Positions 9,575 to 29,016 of a stretch of 64,000 nt of DNA are shown in pieces. The stretch lies in contig JARWZZ010000016.1 in NCBI GenBank assembly GCA_029866125.1, forward strand, positions 1-64,000. The letters run 5' to 3'. How positions within the stretch are numbered: the stretch's first letter is position 1; every line of letters starts with the position of its first letter. The position numbers and the translations under genes were made by a program. The notes beneath the pieces are model-generated. The model had not been told where the DNA came from and did no database searches. It worked only from the letters and a program-made list of their open reading frames with translations. This DNA is from Limnobacter sp. GTDB taxonomy: Bacteria > Pseudomonadota > Gammaproteobacteria > Burkholderiales > Burkholderiaceae_B.

Positions 9575-12022
9575 ATGCGTCTTGTTTTTTCCAACACAGC
9601 ATTAGCCATTGGGCTGAGCGCTGCGCTTGTCGCAGGATTTCTAGCCCCAGCGGCTTCAGCCGCCCCCCCAATCGAGAAGAAAACAGGTGTAGTGCCCGCG
9701 CCAGACTACTGGCCTGCAAGTGCAAATGTGCCGATACCCAAAACACCGCACAAAGAAACAATCCGCTCGGTGTCGCTGGAAGATTTGGACAAACGCGGCG
9801 TGTTGCCTCTGGGGGTTTACAACGGCACACCGCAACTGAATACCAACCTGAAATGGTACGAAGACAACTTTTACGCCACCTTGGCCGCCAAAAAGGTGTG
9901 GAACAAAGGCACCAGCCCCAAAAAGCATGAGTTTCAAGGCCCAATTACTTGGACCTACGCGCCCATTCCCCAAAAGGCACCACCCCCTTGCGACCAGCCC
10001 CAGCCCACTGGCTATGATGCCGACAGCTGCCGGTATGTGTTGACCCTGTTTAAAGACGTGGAAGCCAAGGACCCCGCCAAAGCAACTGCTTTGCGCAACC
10101 AAGTGCGCCGTGGCCGAGATGTTTGGTACAAAGGCACGTTCGGCAATCAAGACGAGCCCTATTTGCACTTTGCCCGCGCTGCGGGTGGGCAAGACAAAAT
10201 TTGGTACCCGTGGCTAGACACCCGTGAGCGTAAAAACCGCTTTACCAAGTACGGCTTGATCAATGACCCTGATTGCACGGAAGGCGATGCGTCAACCAAC
10301 TGGTGGGACAAATGCCAAGACCCGCACAGCTCGGGAGTACTGGGTTATCGCAAGTACTATGCAGACCCAACCGTGGATGAAAAATCAGGCAAGGTGGTGT
10401 TTGACCCTAAAAAGTCCCCGTACCAGAAAGACGAGCTGCAGAAAAACATGCGCTACGTGGTTGGGCACCCCTGCATTCAGTGCCACGTGGGCATGAACCC
10501 CAATAACCCGCCAAGCAACCCCAACGAACCCAAGTGGGAAAACCTGTCGGGCACCATCGGCAACCAGCACATTATTCAGCCTTTGATGTTTTTTCAAGGT
10601 GCTGACCATGACGCAGTGGCCAAGCACATCCTGAAAGCTGGGCGCCCAGGAACCATTGACACCTCCCTGGTGGCCAATGACTTCATGAACAACCCGGGCA
10701 CGCAAAACAACATCATGGACTTTCAGAACCGCCGGGTGTTCAAGCACAAAATGAAAGACCCCATTACGGGCGAAATCAAGGAAGGCTTGACCCAGAACGT
10801 GCTGAAAGGCGGTGAAGACTCTGTGGGCGACCGTTTGGCTTTGATCCGCGTGTACGTGAACATTGGTATGTGCACCGAAGAATGCTGGACGCCCAACTTC
10901 CCGACACCGGGTAAGTTTTTGGGTGAACGCGCCAAGCAAAGCCCATTCAGCATCAAACAGTGCGCGGCAGAATGCGAGCCTTGGAATTATGCAGATGCCA
11001 AAATGCATGACTTGGCCGCCTACCTGATTACCGGCGGCCCCAATTACCTGCTGAAGTCGCAGGAGGCGGACGGCACGCCCGGTGCGAAATACGTGGACTT
11101 GAGCAAAGTGCCTCAGGGACGCAAAATTTTCGCGCAGGAATGTGCAAGTTGCCACTCTTCCAAAGTGGCTCCTGAAAACATTCGTCGGGACAAAGCTGCG
11201 GTGGCCCGCTTCTACGAAGGCCATGTGTTTGGTAACGAAGAATTTTGGCAATACGAGTTCACGAAAGAAGAACGCGAGTCGGCTGAGTTCATTGCCAAAT
11301 ACCTGACCAAAGATGCGAAAGGCGTGTTGAAACCCAAGCAGTTCGCGGAGAAAGGCGTGTTTGGTCAAGATTGGTTAGGCAGTGATGAACCCACTCCCTT
11401 CCATGAAATTGGTACCAATATGTGTCGCGCCATGCATGACAACCACAACAAAGGCCAAATTTGGGAAGAGTTCTCCTCCGAGACCTTTAAGCAGCGCAAA
11501 TCCCCCGGCAAAGTGGATGTGGTGATGAACCGCATGGTGCCAGGGCTTGGTGGCGTGAAAGTGGGCGAGAAGGAAGTGACAGGCGGCCCTGGGTATTACC
11601 GCAACATCAGCTTGTTGTCGGCATGGGCTACATCACCCTTCTTGCACAACAATGCAATTGGTGAAATGCCTGTGCTGAAAGACGGCACGCCTGATGTATC
11701 TATCCGTGGTCGAATCAAAGCCTTTGAAGACGCATTTGCTGAACTCATGATGAGTGACGACCCGAACGTCAAGCCCAGCCGTCCGCAAAAAATCTCAAAG
11801 ACCGATGTTGACCTGAAAATTGCGCCTAGGGAAGACATGCAAGGCCCCATCAAACTGCCTGTGTCCAAAGGTACACCGTATGCGAACTTTGCATCCAGCG
11901 ACCCCCACAGGCCCATCACACAAAAATGTGATGATTTGGTGGAAAACAAGGGGCACCAGTTTGGCGTCTCACTCACACCCGAGCAAAAAACGGCTCTGCG
12001 TGAGTTCCTGAAAGTGATGTAA
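9575..12022 (+). CDS. RoxA-like di-haem c-type cytochrome (oxygenase/peroxidase superfamily)
   Basis: An 815-residue secreted protein with a signal peptide cut near ASA-APP (residue 28). It has two haem c motifs, C300-IQ-CH304 and C523-AS-CH527. The first is followed by VGMNPNNPPSNPNEPKWENL and TIGNQH, as I recall from rubber oxygenase RoxA relatives. Near the C-terminus SLLSAWATSPFLHNNAIGEM, with H691, matches the MauG/CCP/RoxA segment that supplies a distal haem ligand. RoxA cleaves poly(cis-1,4-isoprene) with O2; MauG and CCP act on proteins and peroxide. At 815 residues this is longer than RoxA (about 680). The substrate is unknown. It begins a four-gene haem-rich locus. Confidence 0.72.
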   Translation: MRLVFSNTALAIGLSAALVAGFLAPAASAAPPIEKKTGVVPAPDYWPASANVPIPKTPHKETIRSVSLEDLDKRGVLPLGVYNGTPQLNTNLKWYEDNFYATLAAKKVWNKGTSPKKHEFQGPITWTYAPIPQKAPPPCDQPQPTGYDADSCRYVLTLFKDVEAKDPAKATALRNQVRRGRDVWYKGTFGNQDEPYLHFARAAGGQDKIWYPWLDTRERKNRFTKYGLINDPDCTEGDASTNWWDKCQDPHSSGVLGYRKYYADPTVDEKSGKVVFDPKKSPYQKDELQKNMRYVVGHPCIQCHVGMNPNNPPSNPNEPKWENLSGTIGNQHIIQPLMFFQGADHDAVAKHILKAGRPGTIDTSLVANDFMNNPGTQNNIMDFQNRRVFKHKMKDPITGEIKEGLTQNVLKGGEDSVGDRLALIRVYVNIGMCTEECWTPNFPTPGKFLGERAKQSPFSIKQCAAECEPWNYADAKMHDLAAYLITGGPNYLLKSQEADGTPGAKYVDLSKVPQGRKIFAQECASCHSSKVAPENIRRDKAAVARFYEGHVFGNEEFWQYEFTKEERESAEFIAKYLTKDAKGVLKPKQFAEKGVFGQDWLGSDEPTPFHEIGTNMCRAMHDNHNKGQIWEEFSSETFKQRKSPGKVDVVMNRMVPGLGGVKVGEKEVTGGPGYYRNISLLSAWATSPFLHNNAIGEMPVLKDGTPDVSIRGRIKAFEDAFAELMMSDDPNVKPSRPQKISKTDVDLKIAPREDMQGPIKLPVSKGTPYANFASSDPHRPITQKCDDLVENKGHQFGVSLTPEQKTALREFLKVM

Positions 12023-12030
12023 TAGAAACC

Positions 12031-12067
12031 ACCGCCGAGGGCTATAAACCTTCGGCGGTTTGTTTTT
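12031..12067 (+). terminator. Rho-independent terminator between RoxA-like gene and next gene
   Basis: An 11-pair stem (12031-12041 with 12049-12059, one G-T pair, loop CTATAAA) is followed by TTTGTTTTT. It begins nine bases after the stop of the RoxA-like gene and lies before the next gene of the same strand. Either the downstream genes have a further promoter or they are expressed by read-through at a lower level. Confidence 0.8.
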
Positions 12068-12109
12068 GGCTTGATCACCTACATAATTGGGAAATTCAAA
12101 CAGCATCCT

Positions 12110-13900
12110 ATGACTATTTTTAATCCTTTAATCGGTATTAAAACCTTTCCCATTGCAGTGATGGCTCTGACCTTCAGCTTGTTAGGCTGCAGCAAATCGG
12201 ATGAACCTTTGTCCACCGCACAAGTGACAGACTTGGCCTCAGCACAAGTCCAAACCCAAACGGACGAAGGCAGCGAGAAGTTGGAAATTACACCCCGCGT
12301 AATTCCGCAAACCGACTTGCCGCCTGAAGGCACAAGGTCGCTTTTTGACCACTTTGCCGCACAAAACCATGGCGTGCCCTACCCCTTCAGCAAACTGGTA
12401 GAAACGCTGGGCAAACTAAACCCTGAAGGCAAAGCACCTGTGGTGGTGATGCTGCCCCATGGCCGTTCCCTGTTAAAAGGGCAAGCCAATGATGAAAAGC
12501 CAAGGGTGCTGCTGGCTGCTGACTTTCAAGCCCCCAACACCGAAGCCGCATTGGGCGTGAACATGCGCGGGCAAATGTTTTTGGGCTTTACCGAAAATGC
12601 GGACGAAATTGAAGTCCTGAGTTACAACGAGGCGGCAGGCCGATTTGAATTTCAACTGGTGCAGGACTACACCGAAACGGGCTCACGCAAGCTGGTGTAT
12701 GCCAAACGGCAAATTTGCCTGACCTGCCACCAAGGCGGTGCGCCTATATTCTCGCAACGCCCGTGGAACGAGACCAACGCCTCCACCCAAACCATTCAAA
12801 ACATATTGACTGCCAGAAAAGGCGCTGGGCTGGACCCCCACAGCTATTTGGGCTTACCCACTTCTGTGCCCCTATCCGAACCCGAGCGTTACGATGAATT
12901 AACCGATGTTGCCAGCTTTTTCGCAACCACCCAGAAGCTTTGGCTAGACGGCTGCGGCAAAGGCGATGAAGGCATGGCTTGCCGCAAAACCCTGTTTAAA
13001 CTGGCCCTGGAGTACAAAGCACAGCCCGGCGATTTCAAAGAGGAAGGCCCGATTGTCAGCACACTGAAAGAGTTGCAAAAAGCAAGTTTGGGCAACAAGC
13101 CGATCTTGGTTGCAGAGTCGGATTTGGTAAACCGGGACCCGTATGCCGAAATTGGCGGATGGAAAGGCTTTGTCCGCAAATTCACCAGCGCCAACATCAA
13201 GCTGGGCGACGGCGCCAAAAACAATGAAGACTTGGAGGCGTTTGACAAACTACCCAAATTGCCCGTTGCCTTGGACCCGCTCACCAAGCGCCAGCCCAAA
13301 CGCACACTCACGGCAGACCACATTGACGGCGTATACGGCGTGGCCAGCTTGCTGACTGAAAGCGACATTCAAAGCCTGATGAAACGGGCAGACTTTCAAA
13401 TTGGAACGCTGACCCGCGCGGTTGACCAATTGCCCAACGAGCTGTTTGGTGAACGGCAATTCGAACGCGTCAAACTGGTCCAAGCCTTGATGGAATCCAA
13501 GAATCTTCCCGGTCCGTCCAAAAACTTGCAGTACGCGTTTACAGACGTGTCGGAGATGTCGCCCCCAGTTGCATCAGGCGAGCCGCCTTTGGAACTCTCA
13601 GCCAACTCCCCGCTACTGGCCTACAAGGAGTACTGCTTCTCCTGCCACCGAGGCAACCCCTCCAAGCGCCTTAACTTTTTGGGTGCCGACACGGAGGACA
13701 AAGTATTGGCTGAGTTGAAAGATAAAATCGAAGTACGGGACGCGCTGGACTGGGACAGGTACAAAGGCACGGACAAGGCTTCCATACTGATGCCCCCCAC
13801 AGACTCTGCCCAATATGCAAAACTGGTGGACCATTTGAAAAAAGACCCCGACGCTTTGAAAACCATGCGGGCCACAGTGCCGGGTTTGTTTGGCCTGTAA
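12110..13900 (+). CDS. Di-haem c-type cytochrome lipoprotein
   Basis: About 596 residues from ATG 12110. The frame is open to a TTG at 12071, but the ATG gives a normal lipoprotein signal, MTIFNPLIGIKTFPIAVMAL, ending in the lipobox LLGC. Two haem c motifs are visible, C203-LT-CH207 (in KRQICLTCHQGGAPIFSQRP) and C509-FS-CH513 (in YKEYCFSCHRGNPSKR), about 300 residues apart. The stretch between them matches no domain I can name; I recall similar uncharacterised proteins in other Proteobacteria. A lipid anchor and two haems suggest an envelope-bound electron carrier. It probably passes electrons to or from the RoxA-like enzyme, but this is inferred from position. A terminator precedes it. Confidence 0.7.
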   Translation: MTIFNPLIGIKTFPIAVMALTFSLLGCSKSDEPLSTAQVTDLASAQVQTQTDEGSEKLEITPRVIPQTDLPPEGTRSLFDHFAAQNHGVPYPFSKLVETLGKLNPEGKAPVVVMLPHGRSLLKGQANDEKPRVLLAADFQAPNTEAALGVNMRGQMFLGFTENADEIEVLSYNEAAGRFEFQLVQDYTETGSRKLVYAKRQICLTCHQGGAPIFSQRPWNETNASTQTIQNILTARKGAGLDPHSYLGLPTSVPLSEPERYDELTDVASFFATTQKLWLDGCGKGDEGMACRKTLFKLALEYKAQPGDFKEEGPIVSTLKELQKASLGNKPILVAESDLVNRDPYAEIGGWKGFVRKFTSANIKLGDGAKNNEDLEAFDKLPKLPVALDPLTKRQPKRTLTADHIDGVYGVASLLTESDIQSLMKRADFQIGTLTRAVDQLPNELFGERQFERVKLVQALMESKNLPGPSKNLQYAFTDVSEMSPPVASGEPPLELSANSPLLAYKEYCFSCHRGNPSKRLNFLGADTEDKVLAELKDKIEVRDALDWDRYKGTDKASILMPPTDSAQYAKLVDHLKKDPDALKTMRATVPGLFGL

Positions 13901-13945
13901 ATTAAAACAAAACCAAGCCGAAAGCACAGGCAGGAGACCCCAAAA

Positions 13946-14722
13946 GTGAATATGAATTTGAAGACAATACCACTGGCACTGACCTTGACGATGAGCTGCT
14001 TTGCAACTGCGCAAGCACAGCCCCTATTTGCCAACCTGTACAAGCAGCAGTACGGTTACACACCTGCCTGTATTGCCTGCCACCGGGATGGCGGGGGCTC
14101 GGTGCTTAACAGCTATGGTGAACAGTTCAAAAAGGCCGGTGAATCAGCCGCCGCATTCAAAGCGGTTGCGGACAAAGACTCCGATGGCGATGGATTTGCC
14201 AATGCGGTCGAAGCTTTGGCCAAAGCCAACCCGGGCAGGAAGGACTCCACGCCCAAAGACAAAGGCCAATGGCTGGATGTTTCAAGCTTGATTCCCAAGG
14301 AAGTTCAGGATCAATTCCCAACCGTCAAAGAATACCTGCCGCGCGATGCCATGCTGACCGAGCAAGACATCAGCCGCGCCAAATCCATGGGCGCAACTCT
14401 GAGCAATGCGGACATCAACACGATTTACATCCCGTTGGTGGACCGCAAACCGGCAGGTACCGGCCTGATTTTTCAAGCTGAGTTTAAGGGCAAGCCCTTT
14501 TTCCTGATGATGACCACCGACCGCAACCTGAACATCACCAAAGTGGCCCCGGTAAACACTCGTCAAGTGGAAGCAGCAGCCAAAGCCACGGTGTACAAAA
14601 TCTTTGAGGGTGTGGCGTTGGACAAGTTACCCGAAGCCAAGGGCGATGATTTGAATGCTGCCATTACCCAAGCGGTCAAGAAGGCAGGCACACTGGTCTT
14701 TGTTCGATTGAAAAGCGCCTGA
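13946..14722 (+). CDS. Periplasmic mono-haem protein with Asp-rich motif
   Basis: A 258-residue secreted protein. The start is GTG 13946, because AGGAG at 13932-13936 is nine bases upstream; the ATG two codons later is too far. The signal peptide ends near AQA-QPL. One haem c motif, C42-IA-CH46 in ACIACHRDGGGSVLNSYG, is followed by DKDSDGDGF (residues 76-84), an EF-hand/thrombospondin-3-like calcium motif. The C-terminal half contains FQAEFKGKPFFLMMTTDRNL, faintly like an FMN-binding domain, which I would not assign. The pair of haem site and DxDxDG loop is common in small multidomain cytochromes. It is likely a soluble partner of the flanking haem proteins. Confidence 0.7.
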   Translation: MNMNLKTIPLALTLTMSCFATAQAQPLFANLYKQQYGYTPACIACHRDGGGSVLNSYGEQFKKAGESAAAFKAVADKDSDGDGFANAVEALAKANPGRKDSTPKDKGQWLDVSSLIPKEVQDQFPTVKEYLPRDAMLTEQDISRAKSMGATLSNADINTIYIPLVDRKPAGTGLIFQAEFKGKPFFLMMTTDRNLNITKVAPVNTRQVEAAAKATVYKIFEGVALDKLPEAKGDDLNAAITQAVKKAGTLVFVRLKSA

Positions 14723-14730
14723 GTGGGCTG

Positions 14731-15636
14731 ATGAGAGTGGCTGGTATGCAAAGTTTTTTGCAAAAGTTTATTTTGACAGCGGTACTGGGTGTTTCGATTG
14801 GATCTGGATTTGGGCTAACCCAAGGATTCAAAATAGATACCCCTTCGGCCAATGCTCAAACCCAGGAGCAGGCTCAGAGCTCAGCAACAACAGCTTCATC
14901 AATCGATGCAAGCCCCGCTGCCCCCCCCGCTGAAAACTTTGATTTTTTCAGTGATGCCCCAGTGGAATCCAAGGAGATTGTGGTCATTCCACCCGCCAAT
15001 TCAAAGTGGATTACGGTGGGCGGCCCCGCAGCCCTGCTGTCTTTCATGGTGTTGCTGCTGTGGATCACCAAAATACTGATTCCATTTGAAAAGCACACGG
15101 TTGACATCAACTTGCGCAACTTCCCCCCTGCTGCCAAACGGGGCATGGCCATTGCCGTGGTGTTGTTTGGAATTGCGTTTACTTTCGGTGCAAGTCAGGT
15201 TTGGTATCAAATGCAGTTTTTCAGCAGCTCGGCTGAATACATTGCCAGCATGTCCATGGGCAAACTCATCGTCATGACCCATGCCCACTTGTTTGGTTTC
15301 ACCACCGCATTTTTTATTGTGGGCATCCCGTTTTCGATGCAATTCAATCACATCCGCTTTTACCAATGGATTTTCCCGATCGGACTTGCGGCTTCATTGA
15401 CTGACGTGATGAGCTGGTGGGGAATCAAATACATTGACCATTCTTTCGAATGGGTGTCGATGGTGTGTGCGCTTTTGTTTTCAGCCACCTACCTGTTTAT
15501 GCTGATTGGCTTGCTTCGTACTTTGGCCTTCCCTGAGGTAATTTGGGCCTCAGACAAAGACAGGGCAGCCCGCATCGAGAGAATTCAACGAAAACGGGCC
15601 GCCAGCAAAGAGTTCAAGAAGTTTTTTGATCAATAA
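14731..15636 (+). CDS. Multi-pass membrane protein with conserved-looking histidines
   Basis: A 301-residue protein starting at ATG 14731, nine bases after the previous stop; ATG 14746 is an alternative. It has a first hydrophobic segment or signal (residues 8-30), a Gln/Ala/Ser/Pro-rich linker to about residue 75, and then about five membrane segments from residue 90 to 275. The C-terminal tail is very basic (RAARIERIQRKRAASKEFKK). Within the membrane part lie MTHAHLFGFTTAFFIVGIPF, FNHIRFYQW and IDHSFEW. Paired helix histidines could bind haem b or a quinone. I do not recognise a named family. It is the likely membrane electron-transfer partner of the three haem proteins. Confidence 0.6.
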   Translation: MRVAGMQSFLQKFILTAVLGVSIGSGFGLTQGFKIDTPSANAQTQEQAQSSATTASSIDASPAAPPAENFDFFSDAPVESKEIVVIPPANSKWITVGGPAALLSFMVLLLWITKILIPFEKHTVDINLRNFPPAAKRGMAIAVVLFGIAFTFGASQVWYQMQFFSSSAEYIASMSMGKLIVMTHAHLFGFTTAFFIVGIPFSMQFNHIRFYQWIFPIGLAASLTDVMSWWGIKYIDHSFEWVSMVCALLFSATYLFMLIGLLRTLAFPEVIWASDKDRAARIERIQRKRAASKEFKKFFDQ

Positions 15637-15643
15637 GTCTTAA

Positions 15644-16051
15644 TCACAGGCCCAAAGCTGCGATGCCGGCTTTGGCGATTTGTGCATCTTGGTCTGATTT
15701 CACGCCTGATACACCCACAGCACCTACCACCTGCCCATTGACCAACACAGGCACGCCACCTTCCAACAAGCCATCCACGTAAGGAGCTGTTACAAAGGCT
15801 GTTCTTCCGTTGTTGATAATGTCTTCGAGAATTTTGGTTTCGCGCCGGGCCACTGCCGCAGTTTTGGCTTTGGAAGGGCCAATGTGTGCACTCATTGGGG
15901 GAGCACCATCCAAGCGAAGCATGCCCAGTAAGTGGCCACCGTCGTCCGCCACGGCAATGGTGACTGCCCATTGATTGGCCAATGCCTCAGCCTTGGCGGC
16001 TTGCAAGATGGTTTCGACGTCCGCGCAGGACAAAGCTGATTTGGTGTACAT
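15644..16051 (-). CDS. GlcG/HbpS-family protein (DUF336)
   Basis: About 135 residues from ATG 16051, the usual family length; TTTGGGGA ends five bases before it. A longer frame to 16141 is rejected. The sequence MYTKSALSCADVETILQAAK, VADDGGHLLGMLRLDGAP, SKAKTAAVARRETK and LPV-type end GGVPVLVNGQVVGAVGVSG are characteristic. Members include GlcG of glycolate loci and HbpS, an extracellular haem-binding sensor in Streptomyces. It has no clear signal peptide here. It converges with the haem locus, with seven bases between the stops, which makes a haem-related role attractive but not established. Confidence 0.85.
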   Translation of the reverse strand: MYTKSALSCADVETILQAAKAEALANQWAVTIAVADDGGHLLGMLRLDGAPPMSAHIGPSKAKTAAVARRETKILEDIINNGRTAFVTAPYVDGLLEGGVPVLVNGQVVGAVGVSGVKSDQDAQIAKAGIAALGL

Positions 16052-16137
16052 GTGATCCCCAAAGGTGTGAAATGAAGGTGTGGAAATGATCATGAGATTA
16101 AACAATCTCAGATTATGACGCATCTGGGGATTACCCC

Positions 16138-16620
16138 TCACTGTGCAACTGAAACCGTGGGCTGAGTTGTGGATTCCACCGTGGGCTCAACTTTCTGGTC
16201 GCTCATTGACTCCCTCATTGGCTCGCTGGGTGCTTCTATCACCGGCTCGGGCTCGGGCAAAGGTGGAGGCACCACCACTCCGCAAGTAAGTCCTTCCGTG
16301 GGTGGCGGGCAAAGCGCGGGCTTGGCAGCCTCACCCGCACCAGCAGTGACGGATTTGCCTGCACCAATCTCAACAATCACTTCGTTTTGTAAGCGAAACT
16401 GCGTGCTGTCTGTTCGAATCAGCAAACGCTCTTGATCCTGGACCACTTCACGCATACCGGCACCAAAGCCCGAACTGAAGCCCGAACTGAAGTCGGTACC
16501 GAACCCACCCGAAAGCCCCGAAGAGCCCGAAAAAACTGGCCCCTGAGCGACAGCCAGATTCAAAAACAAAGTAGTCACCAACAATGAGCCCACAGACACA
16601 ACAGCGGCAAATTTTCTCAC
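16138..16620 (-). CDS. Small secreted protein downstream of the TpsB transporter
   Basis: About 160 residues from GTG 16620, with AAGGA ten bases upstream overlapping the transporter's stop region; the frame is open to 16731 but the extension lies inside the transporter gene. A signal peptide (RKFAAVVSVGSLLVTTLF...AVAQ) leads to a Gly/Ser-rich stretch SGLSGGFGTDFSSGFSSGFG, a short charged section EVVQDQERLLIRTDSTQFRL, and a Pro/Glu/Ser-rich tail. No known domain. It could be an unusual secreted substrate of the transporter, but it lacks the large filamentous-haemagglutinin-like TPS domain expected of TpsA. Confidence 0.6.
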   Translation of the reverse strand: MRKFAAVVSVGSLLVTTLFLNLAVAQGPVFSGSSGLSGGFGTDFSSGFSSGFGAGMREVVQDQERLLIRTDSTQFRLQNEVIVEIGAGKSVTAGAGEAAKPALCPPPTEGLTCGVVVPPPLPEPEPVIEAPSEPMRESMSDQKVEPTVESTTQPTVSVAQ

Positions 16621-16633
16621 GATGCAAGCATCC

Positions 16634-18403
16634 TTAAAAATGGTAGCGCAAGGCACCAAACAAGCGACGCGTTTCCGTCTGCTCTGCAAAAACCCCATGA
16701 AGCGAGGGTTTGGACCACACCAACTCGACACTCAAGGGTGAGGGCTCATTTCCAGCGGCTTGATTGCTAAAATCTGCAAACGCTTTGCCCAAATCCATAT
16801 TGAGTGAAACGCCGTAGCCACTGAGGTCATTTTCATTGCCGATTTGTGCAAATCGAAAATCTGCATCTTCACGAAAACGCACGGTACCCCGGTCGTAAAA
16901 AAGATTGACCGACAATGATTTGATTCCACTGGGCAACCAATCCCGAGGCACAATGTATCGGGCCTCAGCGGTCATGATCATGCAGCTGTCACCCGGCGCT
17001 GCGCCCTGCGCAAAGGCGCGAACATTCCTTGCGCCGCCCAATGCACACTGGTTGGTCGAGTCCAAGTTGTTCTCGGCCTCTTGTCCGCGAATGGAAACCC
17101 AACCCAACACCCGACCAGGAATCAAAGACTGCAAACGGGAAAAATTGTATTTAAAGGCTGAGGTTCGAGGCTCATCATCCAAGCCCAGCGGACGACCGTT
17201 GTCGTACTCGACTTGACTGTAACGCCAAGACACTTCAAACGCCGTAATACCGCCGCCCATCCAATCATCACGAGAGTCACCACTCACGAAAGCTTCGATG
17301 GAGTCGACATCTTTCTCAACATTGGATTGACCGCCTTGGAATTGATCTGAATAGCGGCCATGCTCCAAACTCAGCAAACCAAACACATTCAAATTTCTAG
17401 ACCGAATCCAGGGGTAAAGCCCATACAGATTGAATGTTTGAGAATCGCCTTCAAGACGATCTTGGCCATTGGTTTGTACAGGCTCATTCAACTCGTAATC
17501 CAAGTTGGAAACCGAAGCCCCCAAGCGCAAACCGGAATTGCCCACGGGTGAGGAATAATTCAACAGGCTGAACTCCAACTCGCCACCGAAAGACCTCAAG
17601 TGGCTCGCACTGAGCGAATCCCCACGGCCAAACGGGCTGTTTAAAGTGGCAGCAACGCCAATCCTTTCTCGGCCAATGGCTTTGGACCCATGATTGTCCA
17701 ACGTTACCCGTCCAGTAACCACTTGATCCAAGGAAGGTTGAACCACCAACACGGCATAGCCCGCCTTGGTTCCGGGCTTGACTTTGACGGTGAAACGGAT
17801 GCCCTTCAAATCGTTCAGGAGGAACAACACGCGCTCGACTTCGTCCACACGCAGCACACTTTCTGGCTGCAATTGCGACAGGTGGCTGTCCACCACACTC
17901 CGCTGCACGGGCAAGCCCTCTGACCACACCAACTCCACCTCTTGCAACTTGCCGGGCAAAACCTGAATACGAATGACGCCATCCAGCATGCGCTGTGAAG
18001 GCAAGTAAGCATAGGCCAAGTAAAGCCCTTCCTCGCTTTGCATGTAGCGTGTCACCACAGTCACCGCGTGGCTCAGGTCTTCATAAGTTTTTCCCGGCCC
18101 AATGAAGGATTGCAATTTGGGCAACAAACGTTGAACCACCTCGGGGTCAACGCCTTGAATATCAAATTGGCGAATGTCCACTCGCAGATCTTGCGTCGGG
18201 GGAAGCGGCTCAAGCAACTGAGGGGCTTCCTCCTTTTCAAGTTGACCTTTGCGGTCATCCAAAATCTCGCGAACGGGGGCATCCCGAAGCGGCCCAGAGT
18301 ACAACAGCACCTCCGGTGTTGCCACTTGAGCGAAAACCTGAGGCATAGAAAAACCGAGCAGTAGGAGTAAAAAAATATTAAAAATGGGGCCCAACAAGCG
18401 CAT
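16634..18403 (-). CDS. TpsB-type outer-membrane transporter (ShlB/FhaC/HecB family)
   Basis: About 589 residues from ATG 18403 (the longer frame starts only at TTG). A signal peptide ending QVFA is followed by a linker and two POTRA domains: IRQFDIQGVDPEVVQRLLPK at about residues 75-94 and SEGLPVQRSVVDSHLSQLQP near 170-190. A 16-strand barrel follows and ends in LFGALRYHF with terminal Phe. These proteins secrete a partner TpsA exoprotein such as a haemolysin or adhesin. In place of the conserved L6 loop motif VRGY/F this protein has NVRAFAQGAAPGD, with Ala replacing Gly. No TpsA gene is adjacent. Confidence 0.88.
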   Translation of the reverse strand: MRLLGPIFNIFLLLLLGFSMPQVFAQVATPEVLLYSGPLRDAPVREILDDRKGQLEKEEAPQLLEPLPPTQDLRVDIRQFDIQGVDPEVVQRLLPKLQSFIGPGKTYEDLSHAVTVVTRYMQSEEGLYLAYAYLPSQRMLDGVIRIQVLPGKLQEVELVWSEGLPVQRSVVDSHLSQLQPESVLRVDEVERVLFLLNDLKGIRFTVKVKPGTKAGYAVLVVQPSLDQVVTGRVTLDNHGSKAIGRERIGVAATLNSPFGRGDSLSASHLRSFGGELEFSLLNYSSPVGNSGLRLGASVSNLDYELNEPVQTNGQDRLEGDSQTFNLYGLYPWIRSRNLNVFGLLSLEHGRYSDQFQGGQSNVEKDVDSIEAFVSGDSRDDWMGGGITAFEVSWRYSQVEYDNGRPLGLDDEPRTSAFKYNFSRLQSLIPGRVLGWVSIRGQEAENNLDSTNQCALGGARNVRAFAQGAAPGDSCMIMTAEARYIVPRDWLPSGIKSLSVNLFYDRGTVRFREDADFRFAQIGNENDLSGYGVSLNMDLGKAFADFSNQAAGNEPSPLSVELVWSKPSLHGVFAEQTETRRLFGALRYHF

Positions 18404-18499
18404 GTGTAAAGTAATCAATTTCGGAAAGATCCTATTGAACCATTGACTTGAAAATAAGAGAAACGGGTGCTTAGACCACAGTCATCCGATGTAATGACC

Positions 18500-19303
18500 C
18501 TAAGAGGGGCATAGCACGGCCACAGCGCTTAAGTTGTCGATAGACCCAGTCGAACCTTTTAGGATCTGAGCACCCAAGGCATCCAAATGCTGCTGCAAGT
18601 TAAAGCCCTCGGGCACTGTGTCCAGCGCCCAATCGGTATCCACAAAACCAGTCCAGAAGCCATCGGTTAAAAGTAAAAAAGAGGATGACTCAGGTATGCG
18701 CCTAGGCTGCGCCGTTACCTGAACTTGCAGGGAAGACTCTGGCTCGCCCAAGGCGGTGTAAAGTGCGGACTGATGAACGGGTAGCTCATCCGAAAGTCCG
18801 CGATCACGCCACAACTGCATCAAACTGTGGTCATGCGTGCGCTCCAGCAGCACGCCGTTGCAATAAAAATAAAGCCGGCTGTCACCGCTGTGGCACCAAG
18901 TGGCCATGCGGTCGATTTTGTCGATGAATACAGCAACCACCGTGGCATGCATGTCCGCACAAGAAGGGGTTACTTTTTGCAAGTGGAGCAACTGGGCATT
19001 GGTTTGTTTCACCAGATCAGCAATGTAAGCAGACTCCAATGCGGGTTGCGACGAAAACCTGCGCAGCAAATCAGAGACTACCGTGTTGGCTGCCAACTCA
19101 CCGCCCACATGGCCACCCGCGCCATCGGCCACCACGGCGCAAAGCCAGCGCTCATTTTCCCAAACACCAAGGGCATCTTGATTGCTGTCGCGCCCACCAA
19201 TGTCCGTGTAGGTAGCAACACGAAAACGATCAACGGAGGAACTGGGGCATTCAGTCAGCTTATCCAACTCTTGCATCAGGTTTGAAAATTGACTTTGGCT
19301 CAT
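18500..19303 (-). CDS. pppA: PppA-type PP2C phosphatase of the type VI secretion system
   Basis: A 267-residue PP2C/SpoIIE-type serine/threonine phosphatase. Metal-binding motifs are seen in order: GGRDSNQDALGVW (residues 32-44), VVADGAGGHVGGELAAN (58-74), CHSGDSRLYF (near 136) and LLLTDGFW (near 210), with a final Asp in SIDNLSAV. In T6SS loci PppA reverses the PpkA-dependent phosphorylation of the FHA protein and turns assembly off. Its ATG overlaps the stop of the FHA gene by four bases, and the kinase partner is encoded in the other arm of the island at 33137. Confidence 0.92.
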   Translation of the reverse strand: MSQSQFSNLMQELDKLTECPSSSVDRFRVATYTDIGGRDSNQDALGVWENERWLCAVVADGAGGHVGGELAANTVVSDLLRRFSSQPALESAYIADLVKQTNAQLLHLQKVTPSCADMHATVVAVFIDKIDRMATWCHSGDSRLYFYCNGVLLERTHDHSLMQLWRDRGLSDELPVHQSALYTALGEPESSLQVQVTAQPRRIPESSSFLLLTDGFWTGFVDTDWALDTVPEGFNLQQHLDALGAQILKGSTGSIDNLSAVAVLCPS

Positions 19304-20679
19304 GGCTGCGTGCCTTTGTTGTATTGCTCAAACGCAAGTCGAAAGGCATCTGCCAACAATGCAGAAACCGGGTCCGCCGCATGACCAAAAATTGAGCGGT
19401 ATGTCTCCACATGCGCCTCCCATCGGGCTTTGTATTTTCTGAACTCCCAAGCGGCAGAGTTTTCTTCAGTTTTTGAAATCAAAACATCTGGGTCAAATGA
19501 CTCTGCCAACTGTCCAATCACCATTCGCAAAGCCAATGCAGTGGCACGCTGTTGCCCCAACAAATCTTGGGTTGTAGCCTCAATGGTTTGAGTGGGCTTG
19601 AGGTAAGAGTCATTAACCCCAGCAAACCAACGCAGAAAAAGGTCATCCACATTCGGGCAGGACTTCAAGGGGTTGTTGTCCCGTGGGACCAAGGTGGTGT
19701 GCTCGGCATGCATTTGGTTTTTGAGCAAAGTACGCGCTGACATCAGCGCCATCATGCCTTCCAACGTTTTGCGATAGCTCAAACCCATCTCGTAAGCAAA
19801 ATCTGGGCTCACCTCATGCGCCTGTTTAAGCACCCAAGCGCTTAAACCCAAACCTTCAATAAAGCGAGACTCAAAGTCAGCAGTGCCTTGGGGGCGCTCA
19901 ACCGGCCTAGTGATTGAATCACTTTTTGACTCACTTTTTGACTCACTTTTTGATTCACTTATTGACTCAGCCATTCGCGCATCCTTCGCTGGGGCTGCTG
20001 ACGGTGCCACGGGTTCTGTCGTGACTGAAAAACCATGCCGCGCATGTAACTCATCCATCCAAACAGGTGCACTTGCAGTCGAGGTCGAAGCCACTGAGTT
20101 GGACGGGCCCAAACCCAGCAGGTCGTCGATTGGTGAGGCTTCAGCAAACAAGGTGTTTTCGGGCGCTTTTGATTCGGTATTGGCCTCAAGCTCGGTCTGT
20201 TGAAAAATGCTGTTCAGCTTGTCTTCTTTGAATTGATTCGGCATGAAGTCATTGCTAAGCAACTCCACAGGCGCAGCGGGTAACTCCATCGGGTTCCAGT
20301 CCTCAGGTATTGCGGCCACAGCCACTGAAGGTGTACGCAACGCAACTTGAAAAACATACGGATCCAAACAAATCACATCATTGACTTTCAGAATTTTCTG
20401 AGTGCCCTTTTCCAACGGAACTTCATTCACCCAACTTGGGTTGGAGCCTAGCTGCTGCCACACTGCATTGCCCTGAATCAAGGCCACACGCGCCTGCACT
20501 CTGGAAATTAAACGGGCTTGGTCAGCCAAACTGATGGTGCAATCAGGCGCCCTGCCCACAGTTAAGCCCGCTTCACTGATGATCCAGAAAGGACGAGACC
20601 CAGACACGGCCAGAGGGCCTTGCTCCAAGCGCAACAAATACACAGACTCAGGATGAGAATCACTTTTATCGAACAACAT
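19300..20679 (-). CDS. FHA-domain type VI secretion regulator (Fha/TagH-like)
   Basis: About 459 residues from ATG 20679 (AAAGG upstream; the open frame to 20727 lies in the preceding gene). The N-terminal FHA domain covers about residues 15-105: FWIISEAGLTVGRAPDCTIS, then LISRVQARV, the phosphothreonine-binding Arg and Ser loops. A long low-complexity linker with an ESKS repeat near residues 237-252 follows, then a C-terminal helical domain of TagH type (GLGLSAWVLKQAHE, ending HAADPVSALLADAFRLAFEQ). Fha binds threonine-phosphorylated partners to license T6SS assembly. It overlaps both neighbours by a few bases, so it belongs to the minus-strand arm. Confidence 0.88.
   Translation of the reverse strand: MLFDKSDSHPESVYLLRLEQGPLAVSGSRPFWIISEAGLTVGRAPDCTISLADQARLISRVQARVALIQGNAVWQQLGSNPSWVNEVPLEKGTQKILKVNDVICLDPYVFQVALRTPSVAVAAIPEDWNPMELPAAPVELLSNDFMPNQFKEDKLNSIFQQTELEANTESKAPENTLFAEASPIDDLLGLGPSNSVASTSTASAPVWMDELHARHGFSVTTEPVAPSAAPAKDARMAESISESKSESKSESKSDSITRPVERPQGTADFESRFIEGLGLSAWVLKQAHEVSPDFAYEMGLSYRKTLEGMMALMSARTLLKNQMHAEHTTLVPRDNNPLKSCPNVDDLFLRWFAGVNDSYLKPTQTIEATTQDLLGQQRATALALRMVIGQLAESFDPDVLISKTEENSAAWEFRKYKARWEAHVETYRSIFGHAADPVSALLADAFRLAFEQYNKGTQP
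19921..19968 (-). repeat. 12-bp tandem repeat inside the FHA gene
   Basis: Four consecutive 12-bp units based on ACTTTTTGACTC (plus-strand reading): the first two identical, the third with one change and the fourth with one. On the coding strand they give ESKS-ESKS-ESKS-DS in the linker between the FHA and TagH-like domains. Because the unit is a multiple of three, copy-number change would alter linker length without frameshift. Confidence 0.85.
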
Positions 20680-21424
20680 AAACTTGCCTTTGAATGACGG
20701 CCAGGTGCAGGGGGATGCTCCACTCACCAGCGGGATCCACCCAATTTAGAAAAGGTCGACTCGCCTTATCACTCAGGTAATAAAGGGGAGAAGACCCAGT
20801 GGGAATACCCGTTGGAATGCAAACGCAATCTTCGGGATTGATGTAAAACGAGGCACTTTCCATGGACTGTGAAAGTTCCATCACGCGTTTTTTGAAACTG
20901 TCCGCAAAGTCGATTGTGTCCAGCCCATACGCGGCGCACAACTCTTTGTTGCGAATGGAGAACATGGCATGAAGCATTGCAAAATCACGCTTTAACAAAG
21001 CGCCGAGTAACTCAGGCAGAAAGTACTGAATGCAAACAGCATCACTGGGCTCAGCTTTCATTTGCTGTATGTCCAAGAATTTCCATCGAGGAAAACTAAC
21101 TGGCAAATCCACATCAACTTGCAGCAGGCATCCACCTTTGATCCATTTCAAACCTGGGTGGCTTGTATTCCAGCGGTGCAGCATTTGGTTTTTGTCTTTG
21201 CCCATCAACTGGATATTGAGGTGCACCCACACCTCAGTTTTGGGTAGAAAATTGGCAGCGTCCACCCTCTGTAGGCGAATGTCATTCGCGCCGCGAACCA
21301 AATACTGATGAATGGACTGGACCCAGGTGGCACCCGGTTCCACCAAACCCACCACAACACCATTGACCCACAACCACGCGCTAGAACCTTGAATTTGAGC
21401 GGTCAAAACAATCAGGCTATCCAT
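20666..21424 (-). CDS. Unrecognised protein of the type VI island
   Basis: About 252 residues from ATG 21424, with GGAG ten bases upstream; a TTG three codons earlier is an alternative. The first 95 residues look beta-rich (SLIVLTAQIQGSSAWLWVNG, VWVHLNIQLMG). The C-terminal half contains ALLKRDFAMLHAMFSIRNKE and ends in a hydrophobic strand, EWSIPLHLAVIQRQVYVV. No signal peptide, membrane segment or known motif is seen. It overlaps the FHA gene by 14 bases and the 696-residue gene by eight, so it is tightly tied to the VgrG-FHA operon. It could be an adaptor or regulatory partner; no function is assigned. Confidence 0.7.
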   Translation of the reverse strand: MDSLIVLTAQIQGSSAWLWVNGVVVGLVEPGATWVQSIHQYLVRGANDIRLQRVDAANFLPKTEVWVHLNIQLMGKDKNQMLHRWNTSHPGLKWIKGGCLLQVDVDLPVSFPRWKFLDIQQMKAEPSDAVCIQYFLPELLGALLKRDFAMLHAMFSIRNKELCAAYGLDTIDFADSFKKRVMELSQSMESASFYINPEDCVCIPTGIPTGSSPLYYLSDKASRPFLNWVDPAGEWSIPLHLAVIQRQVYVVR

Positions 21425-23507
21425 GCGGACCAAACTCCATGCCGAATATCAAAGCCTCGGGCAGCAGGGCTTGAATGCGCTTTTGTTGACCCAGGGTCAG
21501 GTGAGTTTCATGCAGGTGCAAATGAAGCGGCGTCACCTTTGCCATCACGCGCAATTTCAAATTGGACGGGGCTTCACCGTAAATAACTTGGTATTTCAGC
21601 TGAACCTCGCCACACTGGCGATTCGCCAAATGGGCTTGATGCATAGGCACCTGGTGCAACTGCTCAGGGCTACAAGCATCCATCATCACTTCAAGGGGAA
21701 TGCTGATCGAGCCCTCACTCACTACGGCATTGCCCTTCAAGGCTTCAATTGGGATTTCAACATCGCGGTCCACACGCCAGTCAATCGCCTTGGAGGGGCG
21801 AATGCGCAAAGTGGAGTCCACGGCGCCCGCCGGGGCCAATGCGGACAAAAGCAGAAAATCTTCTGACCAAACCCATGCCAAACCAAGGCCCAACTTGACC
21901 TTGGAATTGCAGTCGCTCAATGCCCACCGCATACGAATGTTGATGGCGGGAAACACCTCGCGGCACTCCAGCACTGCGGCTTTGAGCAAATTGGCTGATG
22001 GAGTGAACCACGCAGGCCCAATGCTTTGATTGTCGACAAAAGGGTCGCCGCTGTGGGGTGCGGTAACCATGCTGCACCATTTGAAATGAGCTGGATCGGC
22101 GGGGCTGCATGTAGCATCCAGTACCTTGTTTGCGATCAAACCCGACGCCACGGCGGGGCGCTCCCCCACGGAGGAAATACCTTGCTGCAAAGAAAGCCGC
22201 TGATGCCCGGATGCAGGCATGGACATGGTTAATCCATACACCGTGCGATTGATCAAGCATATGGGCTTTTCCAACTGCAGGACGCTCAGGTTGACATGGC
22301 CCAAAGGCTTCGAATTTAATCGAGTGGGGACCAACCGGGTTTTGTACACCGCAGGCAGCAAGGGCCGAGAAACATCGGGGGGTTGCTTGGTTTGCAAAAA
22401 ATGATTCAGCGTGGCGTCAATTTGATTGGGCTCAAACAATGAGCTTGAACCACCTGAGTCATCCATGAGCTGGAACTCCACCCGATGCGCTTCGGGGCTT
22501 AAGGTGACATGGTTTTGAATTCCATGGGAATTGAAAACAACATCACTGCCGTTGACTTTGATTTTCGACAACGCTTGGAAGTCCCAAATGGTGTGCGGGC
22601 TGGCACCGCTCAACCAAGGAAAACGAACATCGCCCCAAGCCTGAAAACATTGACTCAAGGCAGCCAACATTTTCTGAGTCAAACCAGCCTGCAGGGCCGA
22701 ATCCAAAAGCCGGGCACTGTTTCCATCCGACTGAGGCAAGCCCTGTTGGCTACCCGCTTGAATCAAGCCCATCATGACCCAAATGCCGATGAGCTCGGCA
22801 GAGCAATAGCCTTGAGCCAGCGCCAAGGGGATTGCCTGGCTGCAAATAACGTCCAGTTTGACATTCGCACTGATGGACAATTCACCCCTGTACTGCTTAA
22901 GAAACTCAGCCAAGGCGTGCGCATAATCATTCAATGAAAACTGCACAAATGCGCCTAAATCGCTGGACACTGGAGGCGGCACCGAAGCGGAACTCCGATC
23001 ATCATCATGGGTTTCCCGTTTGTGAATGCAGTGCCAAGCACCCTCGACATTTGAAGCCACAGAAAGGATGGGACCAAACAGGCCTTGCCTTTTCAGGCCG
23101 GTGGTTTGCTGGCAGTACGCCACAAAATACGAAGCCCTAAACCACGGCCACTGCACCAGCCGCCGGTTTTCTGTCTCAATAAATCGCAGCCCAATGAAAT
23201 GATTTTTCACAACGCTGATGGTGCAGTTCTCAACCCGAATCAGGTAAGTTGTTGGGTAGCGCTGAAGCAGTGCAGCGCCCCATTCCGACCAGTCCTGATT
23301 GCAAACGCCAAACTGGATTAGCCCGATGGTTTGGGGGTGCAAGGGATGGCAGGAAGGCTCCGCCTGCAAGCGGACAAGGCGGAAATCTGCAAGCTGCAAA
23401 TCTGCTGCGCCCACAGCGTTTGCATGTTGGCGAAAGTGTGCAAGGCTTTCAGGCGTGGCTTGCTCCCCAACCCAAAAAATCGATTCGGATTTCAAGTCGC
23501 TGGTCAC
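21417..23507 (-). CDS. Large unrecognised VgrG-linked protein, possibly with a DUF4123-like N-terminus
   Basis: A 696-residue protein starting at GTG 23507, four bases after the vgrG stop. No signal or membrane segment. Residues 95-150 (FIETENRRLVQWPWFRASYF...QGLFGPI) recall the pattern of DUF4123 adaptors, where a basic-aromatic stretch is followed by a helix and FFGP. DUF4123 proteins load effectors on VgrG, so this would fit the position, but the match is faint. The remaining 450 residues include a beta-rich middle and WALSDCNSKVKLGLGLAWVW near residue 555; I recognise no enzyme motif. It could be a cargo effector, an adaptor-effector fusion or a structural accessory. Confidence 0.65.
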   Translation of the reverse strand: MTSDLKSESIFWVGEQATPESLAHFRQHANAVGAADLQLADFRLVRLQAEPSCHPLHPQTIGLIQFGVCNQDWSEWGAALLQRYPTTYLIRVENCTISVVKNHFIGLRFIETENRRLVQWPWFRASYFVAYCQQTTGLKRQGLFGPILSVASNVEGAWHCIHKRETHDDDRSSASVPPPVSSDLGAFVQFSLNDYAHALAEFLKQYRGELSISANVKLDVICSQAIPLALAQGYCSAELIGIWVMMGLIQAGSQQGLPQSDGNSARLLDSALQAGLTQKMLAALSQCFQAWGDVRFPWLSGASPHTIWDFQALSKIKVNGSDVVFNSHGIQNHVTLSPEAHRVEFQLMDDSGGSSSLFEPNQIDATLNHFLQTKQPPDVSRPLLPAVYKTRLVPTRLNSKPLGHVNLSVLQLEKPICLINRTVYGLTMSMPASGHQRLSLQQGISSVGERPAVASGLIANKVLDATCSPADPAHFKWCSMVTAPHSGDPFVDNQSIGPAWFTPSANLLKAAVLECREVFPAINIRMRWALSDCNSKVKLGLGLAWVWSEDFLLLSALAPAGAVDSTLRIRPSKAIDWRVDRDVEIPIEALKGNAVVSEGSISIPLEVMMDACSPEQLHQVPMHQAHLANRQCGEVQLKYQVIYGEAPSNLKLRVMAKVTPLHLHLHETHLTLGQQKRIQALLPEALIFGMEFGPHG

Positions 23508-23511
23508 GCGG

Positions 23512-25527: not shown

Positions 25528-25530
25528 GGA

Positions 25531-26082: not shown

Positions 26083-26245
26083 ACGTATGAGTACTCCCTT
26101 ATAGGTAGGAAAAAAGGGGATCAATCCCCCTTCAATTAACGCGTGCTAGGATTCGTTCAATTTTTCGAGGCGAGTCTATTCCTTCTTTGGCGAAGTACCA
26201 AAAAAGACTCCCCCACTTAACTCGAAGTGAGCAACCCCACTAACA
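26083..26245. promoter_or_regulatory. Divergent control region between the two type VI arms
   Basis: This 163-bp gap must hold promoters for both arms. An imperfect hairpin spans 26172-26210 (arms GAGTCT/AGACTC, inner arms TTTGG/CCAAA), and a second short one CACTT/AAGTG lies just before tssK. No convincing -35/-10 pair or sigma54 box was found, and tssK lacks a clear ribosome site. Confidence 0.35.
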
Positions 26246-29007: not shown

Positions 29008-29016
29008 AGAATACCC

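What the first reader, a model, noticed from the sequence alone, without database searches (positions are those of the whole stretch)
9575..15636. Four-gene locus built around a RoxA-like di-haem enzyme with dedicated haem partners
Five CXXCH motifs sit in three consecutive secreted proteins (815, about 596 and 258 residues), followed by a membrane protein with helix histidines. The first has RoxA/MauG-type landmarks, including the WATSPFLHNN segment and two haem sites. Known RoxA genes are not, to my knowledge, described with two more cytochromes and a membrane partner. The set could route electrons between quinone and a periplasmic haem oxygenase or peroxidase. Substrate is unknown; a hydrophobic one is hinted at by the nearby FadL-type channel.
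Basis: partly seen in the sequence, partly recalled or inferred. Interest (0 to 1): 0.78.

Follow-up and report, generated by a model that had tools for sequence, protein, structure and literature searches.

The report
Four-gene periplasmic haem oxidation module
Four neighbouring genes for a RoxA-like two-haem enzyme, two helper haem proteins and a membrane protein travel together through several groups of water and soil bacteria, and probably form a small electron-fed machine that oxidises a fatty or other greasy molecule outside the inner membrane; neither its substrate nor its chemistry has been tested.

Summary
Window 9575-15636 (a Limnobacter genome) holds four same-strand genes: P0001 (815 aa, two CXXCH), P0002 (596 aa, two), P0003 (258 aa, one) and P0004 (301 aa, membrane). 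The unit is conserved: of 36 loci with a P0001 56-80% identical (Limnobacter, Nevskiaceae, Moraxellaceae and others), 35 carry P0002, 33 P0003 and 31 P0004, in this order; three shortfalls are contig ends, two divergent loci lack P0004 there, one of them also P0003. P0001 belongs to the RoxA/di-haem peroxidase superfamily (98.6%, E 1e-15 to RoxA/RoxC-type proteins) but matches no RoxA, RoxB, RoxC or ordinary peroxidase model; it lies in a separate branch with NN where the others have NG or NA. Other members of that branch often sit beside lipoxygenase, OYE, lipase-like, patatin or GMC genes, which points to lipid chemistry. P0002 is the older partner; P0004 is a haem-less relative of a widespread membrane cytochrome. 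Most likely: a lipid-directed di-haem oxygenase or peroxygenase fed by its own electron chain. The FadL hint is not supported.

The parts
9575..12022 (+). P0001, 815-aa secreted di-haem protein of the RoxA/di-haem cytochrome c peroxidase superfamily ('NN' branch)
10472..10486 (+). haem 1 site of P0001, C300-I-Q-C-H304 (counterpart of RoxA H195, the catalytic haem)
   Evidence: RoxA roles from PMC6311187 (passages)
11141..11155 (+). haem 2 site of P0001, C523-A-S-C-H527 (counterpart of RoxA H394)
11624..11653 (+). W684-A-T-S-P-F-L-H691-N-N, counterpart of the RoxA WATAPYFH517NG (MauG) motif
11954..11956 (+). H794 near the C-terminus, counterpart of RoxA H641 (second axial ligand of haem 2)
   Evidence: alignment; 38 of 38
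12110..13900 (+). P0002, 596-aa membrane-anchored (lipobox here) di-haem protein; only sub-threshold cytochrome matches, no named family
12716..12730 (+). haem site 1 of P0002, C203-L-T-C-H207
13634..13648 (+). haem site 2 of P0002, C509-F-S-C-H513; invariant M561 (13790-13792) is a candidate second ligand
   Evidence: (weak cytochrome-domain match); ligand role inferred
13946..14722 (+). P0003, 258-aa secreted mono-haem protein; residues 38-106 match NF041762 (GEGP di-haem protein) below its cut-off; C-terminal part without family
14069..14083 (+). haem site of P0003, C42-I-A-C-H46
14731..15636 (+). P0004, 301-aa polytopic membrane protein; haem-less relative of a widespread membrane mono-haem family
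15280..15288 (+). H184-A-H186 in THAHLFG: invariant His-x-His of P0004 in or near a membrane segment (179-197)

Best explanation
A four-component periplasmic redox module. Shown by sequence: P0001 is a RoxA-superfamily di-haem protein; P0002, P0003 and P0004 are inherited with it. Inferred: haem 1 of P0001 (proximal H304) activates O2 or a peroxide on a lipid-like substrate, most likely an unsaturated fatty acid, its hydroperoxide or another acyl or isoprenoid lipid, giving an oxylipin-type product; haem 2 (H527/H794) relays electrons to it. P0004, in the inner membrane, takes electrons from the quinone pool and passes them through P0003 and the anchored di-haem P0002 to P0001, keeping the catalytic haem reduced for repeated turnover. 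In the passages on RoxA that I saw no dedicated electron donor is described. Which cytochrome comes first, the direction of electron flow and the substrate are not shown.
For: Conserved unit: 36 loci with P0001, P0002 in 35, P0003 in 33, P0004 in 31, same order and strand. Phyletic agreement: in 60 relatives (own included) P0001 orthologues over 70% identical, P0003, and strong P0004 matches fall on the same 4 genomes; in 369 class genomes strong P0001 and strong P0004 fall on the same 5. P0001-P0002 is a wider pair: homologues in 24 and 21 of 399 order genomes, 19 shared. RoxA kinship: hhalign 98.6%, E 1.2e-15 over residues 214-815; four collinear pieces with RoxA 4b2n holding H195, H394, H517 and H641 (each piece weak alone). 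Lipid setting of the same branch: of 27 cyanobacterial loci, lipoxygenase in 15, OYE in 22, LCAT/lipase-like hydrolase in 16, a second di-haem protein in 21; OYE in 8 of 12 acidobacterial loci; patatin in 4 of 18 long-type Burkholderiales loci; GMC in 2 further Burkholderiales loci; GMC and OYE on a Sinorhizobium plasmid. In the clade, 13 of 36 loci have a fused acyl-reductase/SDR gene downstream (the one member scanned has PF07993 plus adh_short and 841 bits to PRK07201). P0004 shares its membrane core with membrane mono-haem proteins (97.9%). Known parallels: PA2077 oxygenates oleate (PMC4496055, passages); the 2024 review suggests unsaturated fatty acid oxidation for RoxC (PMC10837239, section 7).
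Against: No structure or assay. The lipid genes lie beside related branches, not beside the four-gene clade: there lipoxygenase, patatin, lipase and GMC are in 0 of 36 and OYE in 2 of 36; the one lipid-type neighbour (13 of 36) is absent from the Limnobacter and Moraxellaceae-type loci. Six other loci of the branch (3 Nitrosomonas-type, 1 myxobacterial, L138, L141) have none of these lipid genes. The cyanobacterial loci are mostly Nostocales, so not independent. RoxA F317 and W302 equivalents could not be placed: three alignments disagree. Invariant polar residues between the two haems (Q331, D362, T363 in 38 of 38; N379, D382 in 24 of 24 clade members) do not resemble RoxA's hydrophobic pocket, if they lie there, and may fit peroxide chemistry better. 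In the PDB profile search RoxA was second to a cbb3 cytochrome. P0004 matches no Pfam or NCBIfam model and no PDB chain, so quinone contact is conjecture. L107 and L115 lack P0004 at the locus; the genome of L115 has a P0004 on another contig, so the unit can break up.
Confidence: 0.42

Rival explanations
1. Quinol-fed peroxidase: P0001 reduces H2O2 or lipid hydroperoxides in the periplasm, with P0002-P0004 as its electron supply, and makes no oxygenated product.
For: Superfamily of di-haem peroxidases; weak match to the CytoC_perox model (42.6 bits); invariant polar residues between the haems; a dedicated chain suits a reductive enzyme. A lipoxygenase near related cyanobacterial proteins would supply lipid hydroperoxides (15 of 27 loci).
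Against: Below the cut-off of that model (150 bits) and CCP_MauG not listed; 815 aa against 361 for a di-haem CCP-like protein of the same genome (L161); not grouped with it in the tree, though long branches make that uncertain.
Confidence: 0.25
2. MauG/MbnH-like maturation: P0001 oxidises a residue of a partner protein (for example the invariant W109 of P0003), and the partner is the working protein.
For: MauG-type motif and dedicated small partner; W109 of P0003 invariant in 30 of 30. That such enzymes exist is recalled for MauG and MbnH; PMC6405878 on di-haem enzymes was seen as a search listing only.
Against: The partner P0003 is itself a cytochrome and is absent from the wider P0001-P0002 pairs examined (0 of 18 and 0 of 1); no sign of a modified cofactor.
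Confidence: 0.1
3. Reverse flow: the module is a dehydrogenase or respiratory branch that takes electrons from a periplasmic substrate to quinone.
For: Several cytochromes and a membrane protein would suit either direction; GMC and SDR oxidoreductases near some relatives.
Against: RoxA/di-haem peroxidase folds are not known as dehydrogenases (recalled); no PQQ or flavin protein in the unit.
Confidence: 0.12
4. A rubber or isoprenoid cleaving oxygenase, a RoxA in function.
For: RoxA superfamily, same four landmarks.
Against: Not listed for RoxA/B/C models; haem 1 motif CIQCH instead of CSACH/CHACH, PFLHNN instead of PY[FM]HNGSVP; even RoxC proteins, closer to RoxA, showed no rubber activity (PMC10837239 section 7).
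Confidence: 0.06

Closest known systems
RoxA (Steroidobacter cummioxidans 35Y, PDB 4b2n) and RoxB rubber oxygenases
   Same: Two c haems in the same order; counterparts of H195, H394, H517 and H641 in collinear places; secreted; profile match to RoxA/RoxC-type proteins.
   Different: Not listed for the RoxA/B/C models; HNN instead of HNG; long N-terminal part and a Cys-rich stretch between the haems (C433, C437, C463, C467); haem spacing 223 against 199 residues; conserved partner genes; F317/W302 not placed.
P. aeruginosa PA2077 (10S-DOX) and PA2078 (7,10-diol synthase), the 'FadCcp' group
   Same: RoxA-like di-haem proteins in a periplasmic lipid pathway (PMC4496055, passages); lipid enzymes near related branches here.
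   Different: PYFHNGSVP motif and a tandem pair of enzymes there; no PA2077 or PA2078 sequence was compared here.
RoxC-type and 'CytoC_perox' (NF040606, about 500 aa) proteins
   Same: C-terminal haem domain of the 500-aa proteins related to P0001 (99.1%); encoded near P0001's distant relatives in 15 of 18 long-type Burkholderiales loci and 21 of 27 cyanobacterial loci.
   Different: Separate group in the tree; the 500-aa queries match 0 of 36 loci of the four-gene clade.
Unnamed 250-aa membrane mono-haem family (8 relatives read: L065, L240-L246)
   Same: Membrane core with [ST]-H-x-H-LFG and D-x-x-SWW, 97.9% profile match to P0004.
   Different: 8 of 8 have a CXXCH in the periplasmic loop; P0004 and its 31 relatives at clade loci have none (0 of 32). 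P0003 is not recognisably homologous to that haem domain (3.7%).

Membership tests
RoxA / RoxB rubber oxygenases | match to NCBIfam RoxA, RoxB or RoxC model | tested here: not met
   none of them listed at E up to 0.1 for P0001
RoxA / RoxB rubber oxygenases | two covalent haem sites and the haem 2 axial histidine (H641) | tested here: met
   C300/H304, C523/H527, H794 (by sequence)
RoxA / RoxB rubber oxygenases | MauG motif PY[FM]HNGSVP | tested here: not met
   PFLHNNAIG in P0001; motif table of PMC10837239
RoxA / RoxB rubber oxygenases | F317 and W302 at the distal side and between the haems | tested here: inconclusive
   three alignments disagree; structure prediction failed
RoxA / RoxB rubber oxygenases | cleavage of polyisoprene | not testable with these tools
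   needs an assay
RoxA / di-haem peroxidase superfamily (broad) | profile homology over both haem domains | tested here: met
   98.6%, E 1.2e-15, residues 214-815; 99.1% for the C-terminal half
Ordinary bacterial cytochrome c peroxidase / MauG (PF03150) or DHOR (PF06537) | match to the Pfam model | tested here: not met
   neither listed at E up to 0.1
Ordinary bacterial cytochrome c peroxidase / MauG (PF03150) or DHOR (PF06537) | groups with them in a tree | tested here: inconclusive
   P0001 clade stands apart (SH-aLRT 100) but the two outgroup rows are very long branches
CytoC_perox (NF040606) | score over the curated cut-off of 150 bits | tested here: not met
   42.6 bits
FadCcp (PA2077/PA2078) | oxygenation of unsaturated fatty acids | not testable with these tools
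   only neighbourhood evidence
FadCcp (PA2077/PA2078) | PYFHNGSVP motif | tested here: not met
   PFLHNN; motif table in PMC4496055
Conserved four-gene system | P0001-P0002-P0003-P0004 together in other genomes | tested here: met
   P0002 35, P0003 33, P0004 31 of 36 loci
Membrane mono-haem family (relatives of P0004) | CXXCH in the periplasmic loop | tested here: not met
   8 of 8 relatives have it; P0004 family 0 of 32

The most novel reading that the evidence does not exclude
The locus is the first four-component, quinone-fed lipid oxygenase of the RoxA superfamily: a di-haem enzyme that makes oxylipin-like products in the periplasm and is kept reduced by a private chain made of a haem-less membrane subunit with an intramembrane His-x-His, a mono-haem shuttle and an anchored di-haem protein, carried between Nevskiales, Moraxellales and Burkholderiales as one unit.
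Probability: 0.28. Interest if true: 0.78.

Novelty: new variant of a known kind. Interest (0 to 1): 0.6.

Why it matters
RoxA-like di-haem proteins are numerous and mostly of unknown function; the two RoxC proteins tested had no rubber activity (PMC10837239, section 7). A branch with a fixed set of partners gives a handle: it suggests who delivers the electrons, offers a genetic unit to delete, and occurs in named strains outside the pathogens (Limnobacter humi, Agitococcus lubricus, Solimonas fluminis, Stagnimonas aquatica). It also brings out two unnamed families, P0002 and the P0004 membrane core, and a possible link between bacterial lipoxygenase clusters and di-haem enzymes.

Tried and rejected
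FadL link: the window's FadL protein was sought at 36 clade loci (tblastn, E 1e-5, the stretches held) and found at none; it occurs in 1 of the 3 other loci (L023). Rejected as evidence. LysR (2 of 36) and HbpS-like (0 of 36) neighbours likewise.

Cis-trans isomerase (Cti), considered because it is a periplasmic haem protein for fatty acids (recalled): no such family listed for the four proteins.

Idea that P0003 is the split-off haem domain of the P0004 relatives: profile comparison 3.7%, rejected. P0002 as a copy of P0001: 4.1%, rejected; only its C-terminal cytochrome part weakly resembles other c domains (41.9%).

Placing RoxA F317/W302: one search suggests F458 for F317, F448, another segment (around 389); left open.

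Plasmids: 21 records with relatives of P0001 (Rhizobium 18, Sinorhizobium 2, Mesorhizobium 1), none covering 80% of it. PHROGs: no match for the four proteins. PDB relatives of P0002, P0003, P0004: none convincing. A tblastn of a P0004 relative against plasmids found one record.

Tree caveat: one search used the quick method, flagged long branches, and its 62 rows were chosen by me; the careful method was not run. The RoxA-type proteins reach at most 553 bits to the RoxA model, under its cut-off of 1000 (0 of 100 genomes over it), and many have a third CXXCH, so they stand for RoxA/RoxC-type proteins, not for proven rubber oxygenases.
Full report
WHAT IS THERE. The window is contig C12 of genome G000. 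Its genus holds G015, whose contig has the same length (1,052,988) as the Limnobacter humi contig of locus L080, so the window is most likely from a Limnobacter species. Four + strand genes lie at 9575-15636: P0001 815 aa, P0002 596 aa, P0003 258 aa, P0004 301 aa, with gaps of 87, 45 and 8 bases. Five CXXCH motifs lie in the first three. Pfam gives only sub-threshold cytochrome c matches for P0001 and P0002, sub-threshold Temptin_C/TSP3/cytochrome matches for P0003 and nothing for P0004. NCBIfam gives CytoC_perox for P0001 at 42.6 bits (cut-off 150) and GEGP di-haem protein for P0003 at 56.9 bits (cut-off 300); no RoxA, RoxB or RoxC model is listed.

THE UNIT IS CONSERVED. In 60 relatives (own included) P0001 matches 8 genomes; 4 of them are orthologues over 70% identical (own, two others of the 16 genomes of the genus, and one other genus). 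P0003 occurs in the same 4 and P0004 in the same 4 plus one weak match. In the 3 others all four genes are in the same order. L080-L115 (36 loci, 56-80% identity) form a tight group; the other 44 are at 29-47%. By tblastn these 36 carry P0002 in 35, P0003 in 33 and P0004 in 31, same strand and order. L098 and L088 end before the later genes and L082 ends inside P0003; L107 lacks P0004, and L115 lacks P0003 and P0004, although sequence is present. L115 is the same contig as G464:C304; that genome has a P0004 on another contig (C483), with no P0003 match in the 6000 bases held of it. L080 and L081 match G015 and G027 in contig length. Named hosts include Limnobacter, Stagnimonas, Panacagrimonas, Solimonas, Sinimarinibacterium, Stenotrophobium, Perlucidibaca, Agitococcus and Amnimonas, plus MAGs. 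In 369 class genomes, strong P0001 matches (58% or more over most of the length) and strong P0004 matches fall on the same 5.

HISTORY. In the tree of 62 rows the P0001 clade is one group (SH-aLRT 100); the window, L. humi and L081 rows nest among Nevskiaceae-labelled rows (96-99), which with presence in 3 of 16 genomes of the genus suggests horizontal transfer (quick method, long branches flagged). The clade lies in a 42-row group (99) with long Burkholderiales proteins, cyanobacteria, Acidobacteria, Nitrosomonas-type, a myxobacterial MAG and a rhizobial plasmid protein; RoxA-model and 500-aa CytoC_perox proteins form another of 18 rows (98). The motif after the W..[AS]P segment separates them: xNN in 42 of 42 rows of the first (H before NN in 37; L in L063, L064, L231; N in L145, L147), HNG in 17 and HNA in 1 of 18 of the second.

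KINSHIP WITH ROXA. A profile of nine sequences finds RoxA (4b2n) at E 1.1e-4, second to a cbb3 subunit (3.8e-5), through four collinear pieces that hold RoxA H195, H394, H517 and H641, counterparts of P0001 H304, H527, H691 and H794; no piece is significant alone and the haem 1 piece scores below zero. Profile against profile with 13 RoxA-model proteins from relatives of G451 gives 98.6%, E 1.2e-15, residues 214-815; these proteins are below the RoxA cut-off. With CytoC_perox proteins the C-terminal half gives 99.1%. P0001 is thus in the superfamily but in none of its named groups that I tested. Ten cysteines outside the haem sites are kept in at least 23 of 24 clade members, so disulphides are likely (inference).

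PARTNERS. P0002 is found with P0001 far outside the clade: in 399 order genomes P0001 homologues occur in 24 and P0002 homologues in 21, 19 shared, while about 1.3 would be shared by chance (my arithmetic; the samples bear the same handles). P0002 alone: G242, G414; P0001 alone: G069 (weak), G096, G158, G224, G333. In 18 long-type Burkholderiales loci P0002 is present in 17, a 300-aa lipoprotein family of unknown function in 17 and 500-aa di-haem proteins in 15. P0002 is anchored (lipobox in 6 of 36; hydrophobic N-terminus in 34 of 36) and has an invariant M561 that could ligate its second haem (inference). P0004 has weak matches in 41 of 369 class genomes besides the 5 strong ones, one of them (G667) in another region; the 8 relatives read carry a CXXCH in the periplasmic loop and the motifs SH[IV]HLFG and D..SWW (profile match 97.9%). 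P0004 keeps the histidines but has no CXXCH (0 of 32).

FUNCTION. Neighbours of several related groups are lipid enzymes: in 27 cyanobacterial loci lipoxygenase 15, OYE 22, LCAT-type hydrolase 16; in 12 acidobacterial loci OYE 8; patatin in 4 of 18 long-type Burkholderiales loci, and patatin, lipase and GMC in L063; GMC and OYE on a Sinorhizobium plasmid. Six further loci (3 Nitrosomonas-type, 1 myxobacterial, L138, L141) have none, and the clade itself has OYE in 2 of 36 and the others in 0. The FarA counts for cyanobacteria come from cross-match with SDR proteins and are not used. In the clade, 13 of 36 loci have a fused acyl-reductase/SDR gene downstream (one member identified); that its kind makes fatty alcohols in Marinobacter is recalled (one search was read as a listing). 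These facts, with PA2077/PA2078 (PMC4496055, passages) and the suggestion for RoxC (PMC10837239, section 7), make a lipid substrate the best guess. The electron route through P0004, P0003 and P0002 is inferred from co-inheritance and haem content. RoxA's distal pocket is described as wholly hydrophobic (PMC6797691, passages), whereas this family has invariant polar residues between the haems, whose place in the fold is unknown; peroxide or peroxygenase chemistry stays open.

LIMITS. Literature: search an open-licence library only; no listed title or abstract start describes this locus, and the ten listed papers have no mention of Limnobacter. Papers seen: passages of PMC4496055, PMC6797691, PMC6311187 and PMC10837239, and section 7 of the last; all others as listings.

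VERDICT. A real, conserved and, as far as searched, undescribed four-gene system built on a new branch of a known enzyme superfamily; function plausible but untested.

Noticed in passing
window 18500-34939: Type VI secretion genes: PP2C phosphatase, FHA protein with T6SS C-terminal domain, IcmF/TssM, TagF and a Ser/Thr kinase; perhaps a T6SS with a threonine-phosphorylation switch.
   Followed up: partly
window 16634-18418, minus strand: ShlB/FhaC-type two-partner secretion transporter with POTRA domain, followed by a 197-aa protein without a Pfam match.
   Followed up: no
window 15644-16141, minus strand: HbpS-like haem-degrading family protein converging on the operon; not found at any of 36 other loci.
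   Followed up: yes
L116:510-2162 and 14 other cyanobacterial loci: A lipoxygenase lies close to two kinds of di-haem proteins, an OYE and a lipase-like gene in Nostoc-type genomes: a possible oxylipin gene cluster.
   Followed up: partly
L066:6892-7770 and 16 other Burkholderiales loci; L144:10290-10970: A lipoprotein-like family without Pfam or NCBIfam match (one member scanned), with a conserved RDEIRM-RPG-YLGRAY stretch, encoded with the RoxA-like and P0002-like genes.
   Followed up: partly
genomes G807, G850, G852, G862: Genomes related to G451 hold many RoxA-model proteins: 30 of 100 genomes match, with up to 16 matched pieces in one genome (pieces of one protein can count apart).
   Followed up: no
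L095, L099, L113: Contigs of MAGs labelled Leptospiraceae carry the four genes; in the tree the one sampled (L095) joins Moraxellaceae-type copies: transfer or mislabelled bins.
   Followed up: no
L138:8001-8918: The Panacagrimonas MAG that carries L109 has a second, divergent P0001 relative (47% over residues 419-725).
   Followed up: no
L090, L101, L108, L111, between P0001 and P0002: An inserted gene for a 210-215-aa protein, weakly like the YdjM membrane family (E 0.002, below its cut-off).
   Followed up: no
G464: C304 (L250, L115) and C483 (L249): In this divergent genome P0001-P0002 and P0004 lie on different contigs, so the unit is split or the assembly broken.
   Followed up: partly
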